Assembly: GCF_013184775.1 (NCBI RefSeq)
Contig: NZ_JAATVV010000002.1
Coordinates: 400,301-464,300 of the forward strand
Length of the DNA: 64,000 nt
Reading direction: 5' to 3'
DNA from: Martelella sp. HB161492
Lineage (GTDB): Bacteria; Pseudomonadota; Alphaproteobacteria; Rhizobiales; Rhizobiaceae
In this document: piece after piece, positions 17,316 through 45,420 of the stretch
How the letters are laid out: each line of letters begins with the position of its first letter
How positions within the stretch are numbered: position 1 is the stretch's first letter
Notes under the pieces: model-generated
Databases searched by the model: none
What the model was told of the DNA's origin: nothing
What the model saw: the letters and a program-made list of their open reading frames with translations, nothing else
Position numbers and translations under genes: made by a program

Positions 17316-17837
17316 ATGAAATTTCACCAGATCATCGCGCTCTTCATCTGCGCGCTTATTCTGCCATCGGTTGCAGCGGCCATTGACGACGGGGAGAAAT
17401 ACGTCACGGGTCTCAATACCTACCTGGCAACCGAATGCCCGAAAGGACAACAAAAATTCGCATATGACGGAAAGTCGAATATCGTGTTTTGCTGGGAGGA
17501 CCAGACCAAGGCCGATCTTGTCGCGTCAGATCCGTTCGAACCGAAGCTCAACACCAATCCGCGCAAATACGTCATCGTGAATATTCGCGGCGTGGCGGGC
17601 ACGGACGCGTCCTGTTCGGGCACGTTCGGAAAGGGCTGGGAACAGTTCGGCTGGGACGCCCAGGCTCATATCCACTATTGCATGCAATATGGCGACGGGC
17701 GAGAAGGCACGTATATTGACGACCTTACGTCAAGCCTGACCGGCTGTCAGGGCAAGTATTTCGAGGTTGCCTATAACGGGAACTCGAACATCCATTTCTG
17801 CGCGCTTTTCCAGAAAGGCAATCCGCCAATCCAATAA
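17316..17837 (+). CDS. Secreted protein with three Cys-pair repeats
   Basis: A 173-aa protein with a signal peptide ending near VAAA (residue 22). I know no family name for it. The mature chain holds three repeats, each enclosed by a Cys pair: C41-C59, C100-C122 and C144-C162. The second Cys is always preceded by a similar run: GKSNIVFC, QAHIHYC and GNSNIHFC. The repeats probably form three disulfide-closed modules in the periplasm or outside the cell. Strong GGGAGAA ribosome site. Its terminator has been split by a small mobile-like element (17905-18115). Confidence 0.8.
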   Translation: MKFHQIIALFICALILPSVAAAIDDGEKYVTGLNTYLATECPKGQQKFAYDGKSNIVFCWEDQTKADLVASDPFEPKLNTNPRKYVIVNIRGVAGTDASCSGTFGKGWEQFGWDAQAHIHYCMQYGDGREGTYIDDLTSSLTGCQGKYFEVAYNGNSNIHFCALFQKGNPPIQ

Positions 17838-17880
17838 GCGGATGCCGCCAAGCGGCCCAGAAGGCATGGCACATCATCGG

Positions 17881-17904
17881 CGCCATCGGGAAACCGATGG
17901 CGTT
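17881..17904 (+). repeat. Left copy of duplicated terminator hairpin
   Basis: Arms CGCCATCGG/CCGATGGCG around a GAAA loop plus TT. It is identical over 24 bases to 18116-18139. Read as the left target-site duplication of the element at 17905. Confidence 0.8.
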
Positions 17905-18115
17905 CAGTCTGATGACAAAGTCGTTCATATTGCCTGTTTCGGGCCGAACAGCCGCCCCCTCCGTCATCATCCCCCTTGCTTGTCACGGCGATCCAGACAC
18001 TTCATGGCATTGGACCAAAAGGGTCTTTCGCCGCGCAGACGCACGGCTGCTGGATATCTGTGTCAGGCACAGATATGACGCCAGCGGGGTTTGAAAGCTT
18101 TATCAAAAGTCTGGA
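17905..18115 (-). mobile_element. 211-bp palindromic MITE-like element, copy A
   Basis: No coding capacity. Its ends are imperfect inverted repeats (left CAGTCTGATGACAAAG; right end reversed CAGACTTTTGATAAAG; 12 of 16 match). Inside lies a rhizobial-type palindrome (CGTCATCATCCC...CTTGTCAC...GATCCA and a diverged inverse). It is homologous along its length, in opposite orientation, to 45191-45399; shared runs include TGACAAAGTCG, GCTTGTCACGG and CGCCGCGCAGACGC. Both flanks carry the same 24-bp hairpin, as expected of a target-site duplication. No transposase is nearby, so it would be moved in trans. Confidence 0.75.
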
Positions 18116-18139
18116 CGCCATCGGGAAACCGATGGCGTT
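18116..18139 (+). terminator. Terminator hairpin, right copy of duplication
   Basis: Same 9-bp arms and GAAA loop as 17881-17902, here followed by TTTTCGCTTT. It is the functional-looking end of the original terminator of the secreted Cys-repeat gene. Confidence 0.75.
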
Positions 18140-18292: not shown

Positions 18293-18982
18293 TCAGAAAT
18301 GCAGACCGATCGACGCTGTCAGCGTGTTGGTGTGCACATCGAGATCGGCCTTGCCATAGCCGGAAAGAAGCCCGCCGCTGATCGCCGCCGTCGGAAAGCC
18401 CGTATAGCGATATTCAACACGGCCAAAAAGCTTGCTGGTGAAGGCATAGTCCACACCGGCGCCAAAGGTATAGCCGTAAACGGTCGATGTGCCGTCATCC
18501 GTGCCGATCTGATCATGGACGCTCTGGACAGCAAGTCCGCCGGTTGAATAGAGCAGTGCATTGCCAAGCGCATAGCCAAGACGTCCGCGCAGCGAGCCAC
18601 CCCATTCAGCGCCAATCTTCTCGGTTCCGACATAGGGAACGGCATAGCTCTTCTCATTCCATTGCCGGGTCACATCGCCTTCGATGCCAACCACCAGGCT
18701 GTTGTCGAACTGATAGTCATATCCGGCAAAGGCCGAGGCCATGCCACCATTGAAATCATCGGAAACCGAACCGCCGCCCGAAAAAGTCGATTTGGCATTG
18801 AGCCAGGAATAGCCACCGCCGGCACCGAGATAAAAGCCGGTCCAGTCCATGGTGGCAGGTGCCGCAATGGCAGCGCTGTCGTCAGAAGGCGCGGCAACGA
18901 TATCGGCAGCAAAGGCCGGCATCGCCAAGCCTGCGCAGGCAAGGGCAATAGTAAGTGACGTCTTCAAGAGTGCATTCCCCAT
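18293..18982 (-). CDS. Outer-membrane beta-barrel protein, Omp25/Omp31 family
   Basis: An eight-stranded outer-membrane barrel of 229 aa. The signal peptide (1-25, ending MPAFA) is followed by mature ADIVAAP, then DWTGFYLGAGGGYSW, the family's first strand. The chain ends in aromatic SIGLHF, the usual C-terminal barrel signal. The mature Ala-Asp N-terminus matches the class of Rhizobiales barrels that L,D-transpeptidases attach covalently to peptidoglycan. The gene lies next to a small mobile-like element and divergent, across ~160 bp, from nothing on the plus strand; lrp follows on the same strand further right. Confidence 0.92.
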   Translation of the reverse strand: MGNALLKTSLTIALACAGLAMPAFAADIVAAPSDDSAAIAAPATMDWTGFYLGAGGGYSWLNAKSTFSGGGSVSDDFNGGMASAFAGYDYQFDNSLVVGIEGDVTRQWNEKSYAVPYVGTEKIGAEWGGSLRGRLGYALGNALLYSTGGLAVQSVHDQIGTDDGTSTVYGYTFGAGVDYAFTSKLFGRVEYRYTGFPTAAISGGLLSGYGKADLDVHTNTLTASIGLHF

Positions 18983-45169: not shown

Positions 45170-45190
45170 GACGGGCCGGAAACGGCCCGT
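45170..45190 (+). repeat. Left copy of duplicated terminator hairpin (aapP)
   Basis: Arms ACGGGCCG and CGGCCCGT around GAAA. It differs at two positions from the copy at 45400-45420, which is the one followed by a T-run. Confidence 0.7.
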
Positions 45191-45399
45191 CAGGCTGCTG
45201 AAAAACCTCGCCCCTCTTTTCTGGCATCATGGCTGTGCTTGTCACAGGCATGATGCCGACGCGCGTCTGCGCGGCGATAAGGACCTTTTATTCAGTGCCT
45301 TATGAAGCTGGATCCCCGTGACAAGCATGGGATGACGACGGAAGGGGCAGCCATTCCACCACTACGAGCCGGCAATCTGAGCGACTTTGTCAGCAGTCG
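45191..45399 (+). mobile_element. 209-bp palindromic MITE-like element, copy B
   Basis: Counterpart of 17905-18115 in opposite orientation. The ends are inverted repeats (CAGGCTGCTGAAAAA and, reversed, GACTGCTGACAAAGTCG). The inside shares CGCCGCGCAGACGC, GCTTGTCACGG and AATTGCC-like runs with copy A. No open frame of note. The flanking hairpins (45170-45190, 45400-45420) differ from those of copy A, which means they belong to the target, not the element. Two differences between its flanks suggest an older insertion than copy A. Confidence 0.72.
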
Positions 45400-45420
45400 G
45401 ACGGGCCGGATACGGTCCGT
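45400..45420 (+). terminator. Terminator hairpin, right copy of duplication (aapP)
   Basis: Arms ACGGGCCG and CGGTCCGT (one G-U pair) around GATA, followed by TTTTTC. It ends the aapJQMP transcript and lies just before the convergent DUF1489 gene. Confidence 0.72.

What the first reader, a model, noticed from the sequence alone, without database searches (positions are those of the whole stretch)
17881..18139. Terminator-targeting MITE-like element (copy A) flanked by a 24-bp duplicated hairpin
The 211-bp element lies exactly between two identical 24-bp copies of a terminator hairpin (9-bp arms around GAAA, plus TT). Only the right copy is followed by a T-run. Removing the element and one copy restores a normal rho-independent terminator for the secreted Cys-repeat gene. 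The element has inverted ends (12 of 16 match) and no gene. This suggests a non-autonomous mobile unit that inserts into terminators and duplicates the whole stem-loop, a much larger target duplication than usual. The inferred transposase type (perhaps IS1182-like, which I recall includes hairpin-targeting members) is only a guess.
Basis: partly seen in the sequence, partly recalled or inferred. Interest (0 to 1): 0.78.

Follow-up and report, generated by a model that had tools for sequence, protein, structure and literature searches.

The report
Mobile element that duplicates terminator hairpins
A short jumping DNA element without a gene of its own inserts into the stem-loops that end bacterial genes and leaves a full copy of the stem-loop on each side, so the shape of the target, not a fixed length, seems to set how much DNA is duplicated.

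Summary
Element A (17905-18113, 209 bp) sits between two copies of one terminator hairpin (17879-17904, 18114-18139). It is one of at least 48 copies in this genome, by inference a Martelella. Of 88 distinct copies in this genome and its sister, 62 have flanks more alike than the 99th percentile of mismatched pairs. Duplication length (18-30 bp) tracks hairpin length (r = 0.98, n = 41). Of nine insertion loci tested, seven have an empty site with one hairpin in the other genome; two insertions are shared.

The same terminal repeat bounds complete insertion sequences with an IS1182-family transposase. In the window's bacterial family, 6 of 10 testable ones have exactly duplicated hairpins, 3 diverged ones, 1 different hairpins; of 7 from other bacteria, 3 have duplicated hairpins. 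A second IS1182 group has other ends and mostly 4-5 bp duplications. Yersinia YPAL repeats share the terminal repeat.

Terminator-targeting MITEs (YPAL) and hairpin-targeting IS1182 members (IS1272, which removes its hairpin) are known. Exact whole-hairpin duplication, tied to one IS1182 group and to YPAL, I did not find in the papers searched. No transposase was found in this draft genome. The mechanism is inferred.

The parts
17879..17904 (+). left copy of the duplicated terminator hairpin (26-bp target duplication)
   Evidence: 25 of 26 identical to 18114-18139; folds as a hairpin
17905..18113 (+). MITE copy A, 209 bp, no transposase gene
   Evidence: profile match over nearly the full model; 41 genome matches with the 17881-18139 query
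17905..17920 (+). left terminal inverted repeat (CAGTCTGATGACAAAG; family consensus CAGACTGCTGACAAAG)
18098..18113 (+). right terminal inverted repeat, 12 of 16 complementary to the left
   Evidence: read
18114..18139 (+). right copy of the duplicated hairpin, followed by TT, so that the original T-run TTTT is intact here
17316..17837 (+). upstream gene (173 aa, no Pfam match) whose terminator was the target
18293..18982 (-). convergent gene on the other side (outer-membrane beta-barrel protein, PF13505), so the target lay between convergent genes
45171..45190 (+). hairpin copy beside MITE copy B
45191..45400 (-). MITE copy B, 210 bp, same family
   Evidence: profile match
45401..45420 (+). 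second hairpin copy beside copy B (18 of 20 identical), ending at a T-run

Best explanation
It is a miniature inverted-repeat element moved in trans by an IS1182-family transposase of one particular group. The transposase inserts the element at terminator (stem-loop) DNA by joining its 3' ends at the two 5' feet of the stem-loop, one foot on each strand. Repair of the two single-stranded gaps, each as long as the stem-loop, leaves one full hairpin on each side. Shown here: the family, the ends, the whole-hairpin duplication, the empty sites, and autonomous elements with the same ends and the same duplications. Inferred: that this transposase group moved these copies in Martelella, and the chemistry. 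I think the target is most likely attacked as an extruded cruciform, because both 5' feet then meet at the four-way junction whatever the hairpin length, which would explain a duplication that varies in length but is palindromic end to end. After insertion the left hairpin has mostly lost its T-run and the right one keeps it, so the element is probably transcribed into the 3' untranslated region (inferred).
For: Family and flanks: 41 matches in the own genome plus 7 more copies. Of 88 distinct copies in two sister genomes, own left and right flanks match above the 99th percentile of cross pairs in 62, and the own right flank is the unique best of 88 in 55. Of the 44 copies with a hairpin abutting both ends, 38 pass that threshold. 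End-anchored ungapped duplications: 47 of 88 versus 2 of 3000 cross pairs. Structure sets the length: duplication length 18-30 bp in those 47; r = 0.976 with hairpin length in the 41 of them with a scored right hairpin. Of the outer six base pairs of the duplication 5.02 are complementary on average, versus 1.94-3.66 when the length is shifted by 1-4 bases either way. Empty sites: 7 of 9 loci, each with one hairpin. Autonomous partners: the terminal repeat alone, scanned through genome contigs, gave 80 loci from a capped list. 71 of 81 hits with at least 42 nt upstream have a hairpin abutting the end, control 141 of 1620 (stem score at least 7). 25 of 51 hits with at least 400 nt inside have the same hairpin again inside the locus, control 1 of 498. 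L206 encodes an IS1182 transposase, NF033551 E 4e-144. In the window's bacterial family, of 10 group A elements with both ends and flanks, 6 have exact and 3 diverged hairpin duplications.
Against: 26 of 88 copies do not exceed the 99th percentile; six of these have a good hairpin on both sides, some of them different hairpins (such as L002). Two different hairpins, or no duplication, also occur at autonomous elements: of seven of IS size from other bacteria, three have duplicated hairpins (L196, L206, L217), three have a different hairpin on each side (L197, L234, L248) and L256 has only a 9-bp repeat without a scored hairpin; L310 too has different hairpins. Recombination between copies or assembly error could explain this; untested. 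One insertion shared by both genomes (L004, L056) has a duplication of 16-17 of 20 with no hairpin. An empty site could in principle be a precise deletion between the two hairpins rather than a site never filled. No IS1182 transposase was found in the own genome or its sister, both drafts, so the mobiliser is inferred from ends and target behaviour. Nothing here tests cruciform against single-stranded hairpins.
Confidence: 0.8

Rival explanations
1. The transposase recognises hairpins in single-stranded DNA (lagging strand or transcription bubble) rather than a cruciform; the outcome is the same whole-hairpin duplication.
For: Hairpins abut the ends, and terminators sit where DNA is often opened (general knowledge). 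No data here separate the two.
Against: Both strands must be cut at their 5' feet, which is simple at a four-way junction and harder if only one strand is folded (inference).
Confidence: 0.3
2. The transposase recognises the terminator by its A-run and T-run (sequence), and the duplication spans what lies between.
For: Of 44 Martelella copies with both hairpins, 30 are T-rich after the right hairpin and 26 A-rich before the left.
Against: The duplication takes in a varying number of the flanking A-T pairs (none in L302, two in L301) yet is palindromic end to end; 14 of 44 are not T-rich after the right hairpin by my cut-off.
Confidence: 0.12
3. The hairpins are part of the mobile unit and travel with it.
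For: Hairpins are found on both sides in 44 of 88 copies.
Against: The hairpin sequence is specific to each locus, and empty sites already carry it.
Confidence: 0.01
4. Ordinary insertion with random stagger, then selection keeps only copies with an intact terminator on the right.
For: A terminator is kept downstream of many insertions (30 of 44 T-rich after the right hairpin).
Against: Selection for one working terminator would not place the edge of the left duplication at the hairpin foot; changing the length by one base lowers outer pairing from 5.02 to 2.91 or 3.47 of 6.
Confidence: 0.04
5. An IS110-family element found with the same end in a relative is the mobiliser.
For: In G006 an IS110-family gene (PF02371) lies just inside this terminal repeat.
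Against: In 10 of 12 copies examined in G007 and G012 the IS110 element sits in the inner palindrome of such repeats, and its own ends differ from the terminal repeat.
Confidence: 0.01

Closest known systems
YPAL / RU-2 (Yersinia palindromic sequences; De Gregorio et al. 2006, not held, recalled; sequence printed in PMC2759123, reviewed in PMC2229807, passages seen)
   Same: Miniature non-autonomous repeat with similar ends: 16 of 17 at the 5' end and 12 of 17 at the 3' end. According to the review, target duplications of 3-26 bp and targets that span or adjoin dyad symmetry. Recalled from the 2006 abstract: many targets overlap rho-independent terminators.
   Different: 168 bp versus 209 bp; Gammaproteobacteria versus Alphaproteobacteria; internal sequence not compared. 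The passages I saw name no transposase for YPAL.
IS1272 and TnSha1 (IS1182 family, staphylococci; PMC5678879, PMC4923244, passages seen)
   Same: Same IS family; target hairpins, several of them terminators, without primary sequence specificity.
   Different: They replace or partly delete the target hairpin and leave no duplication; here the hairpin is kept whole on both sides. PMC5678879 drew whole stem-loop duplication as a possible pathway b.
Group B IS1182 elements of the same bacterial family
   Same: Same transposase family (mean 31% identity to group A).
   Different: Ends mostly of the type GATNNTGTTGAAAAA. Of 12 loci analysed, 8 show 4-5 bp duplications, 1 is ambiguous in a G-run, 3 are undetermined; I saw no duplicated hairpin in the 11 sets of flanks printed (by eye).
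ISMac2-derived MITEs (IS1182) of Methanosarcina acetivorans (PMC3852290, passage seen)
   Same: MITEs of 160 and 169 bp assigned to an IS1182 element.
   Different: Listed duplications are 4 and 0 bp.

Membership tests
MITE | many short copies with terminal inverted repeats and no transposase gene inside | tested here: met
   at least 48 copies, consensus 209 bp with inverted ends
MITE | mobility, seen as filled and empty sites | tested here: met
   7 of 9 loci differ between sister genomes
YPAL-type repeat | same terminal sequence | tested here: met
   16 of 17 at the 5' end; the 3' end is less alike, 12 of 17
YPAL-type repeat | insertion at terminator-like hairpins with target duplication | tested here: met
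YPAL-type repeat | similar internal sequence | not tested
   the bodies were not aligned
IS1182 family (autonomous partners, group A) | IS1182 transposase | tested here: met
   L206: NF033551 E 4e-144, PF13751, PF05598; relatives in the window's bacterial family 56-65% identical
IS1182 family (the window element itself) | encodes or is moved by an IS1182 transposase | tested here: inconclusive
   it encodes none and none was found in this draft genome; the link rests on shared ends and target behaviour
IS1272-type hairpin replacement | target hairpin deleted on insertion | tested here: not met
   hairpin on both sides when filled, once when empty
IS110-type element | IS110 recombinase element bounded by these ends | tested here: not met
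   10 of 12 IS110 copies lie in the inner palindrome of such repeats

The most novel reading that the evidence does not exclude
One group of IS1182 transposases does not measure its target stagger in bases but by structure: it attacks the two 5' feet of an extruded stem-loop at the four-way junction, so the target duplication equals the whole palindrome (about 17-30 bp). A related group in the same bacterial family keeps a 4-5 bp stagger. This group and its MITEs, YPAL included, have made the terminators of bacteria in several phyla a common landing site.
Probability: 0.58. Interest if true: 0.75.

Novelty: new variant of a known kind. Interest (0 to 1): 0.62.

Why it matters
DDE transposases usually duplicate a short target of nearly fixed length (general knowledge). 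Here the length follows the folded target, in sequence data from several phyla, while a related group of the same IS family behaves conventionally. That makes the switch between a fixed and a structure-defined stagger testable by comparing two related enzymes. It also offers a candidate transposase for YPAL, whose mobiliser is not named in the passages I saw, and would explain why such repeats lie at gene ends, where they may become part of many 3' untranslated regions.

Tried and rejected
IS110 as mobiliser: an IS110-family gene next to the terminal repeat in G006 looked like the partner. Copies in G007 and G012 (12 loci compared of 18 close matches) show that in 10 of 12 it lies in the inner palindrome of such repeats. 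Rejected.

IS5-like fragments L183 and L187: a DUF772 search in the genus led to ends CAGGCTGCTGCAAAA that resemble the repeat. I saw no duplicated hairpin beside them; not pursued.

Own-genome transposase: PF13751, PF05598 and the L206 transposase at E 1e-40 gave no match in the own genome, a draft of 52 contigs, so a copy lost in a gap is possible.

Pattern search for the terminal repeat in 394 family genomes: 45 have an exact match; I saw no pair of ends a transposon apart among the places listed (at most ten per genome).

Empty site at the window locus: not informative.

Rfam: nothing at gathering threshold in the window.

Rows dropped: alignments under 100 columns and one neighbour each in L013 and L023 were left out to give 41 copies. 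One search kept 88 of 106 profile hits; the rest lacked 70 nt of flank or were duplicates. One search used 41 of 47 duplications for the length correlation (those with a right hairpin scoring 7 or more). In one search, 12 of 15 group B loci were analysed; my motif did not find the frame in L321, L323, L324. In one search, 5 of 15 group A loci could not be tested (an end or a flank missing). In one search, 22 of 37 loci gave a protein of 380 aa or more by my motif. One search printed joined flanks of five G001 loci; one search used four.

Literature: ten searches. Passages, not whole papers, were seen of PMC5678879, PMC4923244, PMC3281130, PMC9208149, PMC2229807, PMC2267715, PMC2847712, PMC2759123, PMC3852290, PMC10969869.

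Full report
Observation. The two 24-bp hairpins are exact and are the only repeated 24-mer on the window's strand. Between them lies an element bounded by imperfect inverted repeats. A search of the own genome with 17881-18139 gave 41 matches; 78 candidates were seen and 40 scored. A profile built from 36 copies added window copy B (45191-45400, minus strand) and six more among 13 loci fetched around further terminal-repeat sites, so at least 48 copies, a few of them truncated. The consensus is 209 bp including one flanking T and A, a long imperfect palindrome, TCAGACTGCTGACAAAGTC...TTTGTCAGCAGTCTGA. Comparison of filled and empty sites puts the first T and last A in the duplicated target, so the element is CAG...CTG.

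Organism. In a DNA search of 13 genus genomes, own included, only the own genome and G001 match the element. G003, G004 and G006 carry relatives with the same ends, different interiors and again repeated hairpins (L136, L138, L140).

Duplicated hairpins are the rule. In the first 41 copies, 31 exceed the 99th percentile of cross-pair alignments. In 88 distinct copies from the two genomes, 62 do, and in 55 the own right flank is the unique best match among all 88. With strict end-anchored ungapped matching, 47 of 88 pass against 2 of 3000 cross pairs. The repeated unit differs from locus to locus, so it is target sequence, not part of the element. A hairpin abuts at least one end in 81 of 88 and both ends in 44 of 88; shuffled flanks give 56 of 880 for a single end. 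Of the 44 with two hairpins, 38 pass the 99th percentile and 6 do not.

The duplication is the hairpin. Its length, 18-30 bp in the 47, is fixed by the two element ends, without reference to folding. It then proves palindromic end to end: 5.02 of the outer six pairs are complementary on average, and each change of length by 1 to 4 bases lowers this to 1.94-3.66. Length correlates with hairpin length at r = 0.976, n = 41, median difference 0. The number of flanking A-T pairs taken in varies (for example two in L301, none in L302), which fits a symmetric cut at a junction better than a fixed distance from the T-run.

Empty sites. Flanks of five own-genome copies (L007, L012, L018, L021, L025) were searched in the genus and flanks of four G001 copies (L093, L097, L098, L133) in G000 and G001. 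Seven of nine have an empty allele with one hairpin: L012 (in G001 and again in G002), L007, L018 and L025 in G001; L097, L098 and L133 in the own genome. L021 and L093 are inserted in both genomes. L025 has weak homology (79%) with a diverged hairpin, and L018 matches mainly on one side; the other five are clear. Precise deletion between the two hairpins would leave the same picture and is not excluded for single loci. At the window locus the sister genome shows neither the element nor the upstream gene, so it says nothing.

Autonomous partners. Of 81 hits with enough upstream sequence, 71 have a hairpin abutting the end (stem score at least 7), against 141 of 1620 random positions; at a score of 6 it is 72 against 300, at 8 it is 48 against 64. 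Of 51 hits with at least 400 nt inside, 25 have the same hairpin again further inside at 16 of 18 or better, against 1 of 498 for hairpins of other loci. Seven loci have a partner end at insertion-sequence distance with an IS1182-like frame between: L196, L206 and L217 have duplicated hairpins (L217 is 3.0 kb with a second, transposase-like frame by eye); L197, L234 and L248 have a different hairpin on each side; L256 has only a 9-bp repeat. L206, L217, L234 and L248 have long open frames of 461-505 codons. The L206 transposase is IS1182 family: NF033551 E 4e-144, PF13751, PF05598; the others I assign by their resemblance to it.

Natural control. The L206 transposase matches 39 of 394 genomes of the window's bacterial family at E 1e-40 and falls into two groups of matches. 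Group A (56-65% identical) has ends CAGACTGCTGACAAA. Of 15 group A loci, 10 have both ends and flanks: 6 have exact hairpin duplications of 21-26 bp (L301, L302, L303, L304, L306, L309), 3 have diverged ones (L311, L312, L314, by eye), and L310 has a different hairpin on each side. Group B (30-36% identical) has ends mostly of the type GATNNTGTTGAAAAA. Of 12 of 15 loci analysed, 8 have 4-5 bp duplications, one is ambiguous in a G-run and 3 gave no clear ends; I saw no duplicated hairpin (read by eye from the printed flanks). In a tree of 22 proteins (12 A, 10 B) the groups separate with support 1.000 and 30.8% mean identity.

Known relatives. PMC2759123 prints the sequence of YPAL/RU-2 (passages); its ends match this terminal repeat at 16 of 17 and 12 of 17 positions. 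PMC2229807 (passages) reports target duplications of 3-26 bp at or beside dyad symmetry for YPAL. The original paper (De Gregorio et al. 2006) is not held; that its targets overlap terminators is recalled. PMC5678879 (passages) reports that IS1272, an IS1182-family element, replaces target stem-loops without duplication, and draws whole stem-loop duplication as a possible pathway b. PMC4923244 (passages) reports hairpins, several of them terminators, as targets with partial deletion. Both cite Siguier et al. 2015 for palindromic targets of some IS1182 members; that review and ISfinder were not available. In the listings of the ten searches and the passages seen I met no report of exact whole-hairpin duplication by an IS1182 group or of a link between YPAL and IS1182; some listings were cut, and subscription journals are mostly outside that library.

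Mechanism. Shown: a duplication that matches the structure, and its association with one IS1182 group. Inferred: 3' ends of the element joined at the two 5' feet of the stem-loop and gaps filled. A cruciform would bring both feet together whatever the hairpin length; this is my preferred reading and is untested. In the 44 copies with both hairpins, 3 left and 30 right hairpins are followed by T-rich sequence, so the working terminator is displaced downstream and the element probably joins the 3' untranslated region (inferred).

Results against. 26 of 88 copies do not pass the 99th percentile. Some elements lie between two different hairpins (L002, L197, L234, L248, L310). The insertion shared by L004 and L056 has a duplication without hairpin (16 and 17 of 20). 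No IS1182 transposase was found in the own genome or G001, although insertions differ between the two; both are drafts.

Noticed in passing
L151, L160, L165, L170, L173, L177 and L152, L161, L166, L171, L175, L179: An IS110-family element of about 1.18 kb (PF02371 by its G006 relative), with 10 close matches in G007 and 8 in G012, lies in the inner palindrome (CCCGAGGAT / GATGAC) of related repeats in 10 of the 12 copies compared.
   Followed up: partly
L022 and L030 (own genome): The two hairpin copies carry loops that are reverse complements of each other (one mismatch in L030), as if one hairpin had been inverted during or after insertion.
   Followed up: no
L004 (own genome) and L056 (G001): A shared insertion whose duplication (16 and 17 of 20) does not form a hairpin; a possible exception to hairpin targeting.
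   Followed up: no
L209: Two perfect terminal repeats face each other, 53 bp end to end, between two different terminator hairpins in an Oscillospiraceae genome bin; perhaps a minimal element or a joint of two ends.
   Followed up: no
L204, L221, L231, L236, L259: At these contig-end loci the terminal repeat runs straight into a terminator-like hairpin with a T-run, in four of them followed by TATAAT, presumably ahead of the transposase gene.
   Followed up: no
G000:C12:399977-400150 (L017): A further copy of the family ends about 150 bp left of the window's first base.
   Followed up: no
L013 and L023 (C1:421640-422080): Two copies of the element lie side by side in opposite orientation.
   Followed up: no
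L197, L234, L248, L310: IS1182-type elements with a different hairpin on each side, as expected if two copies recombined; not tested.
   Followed up: no
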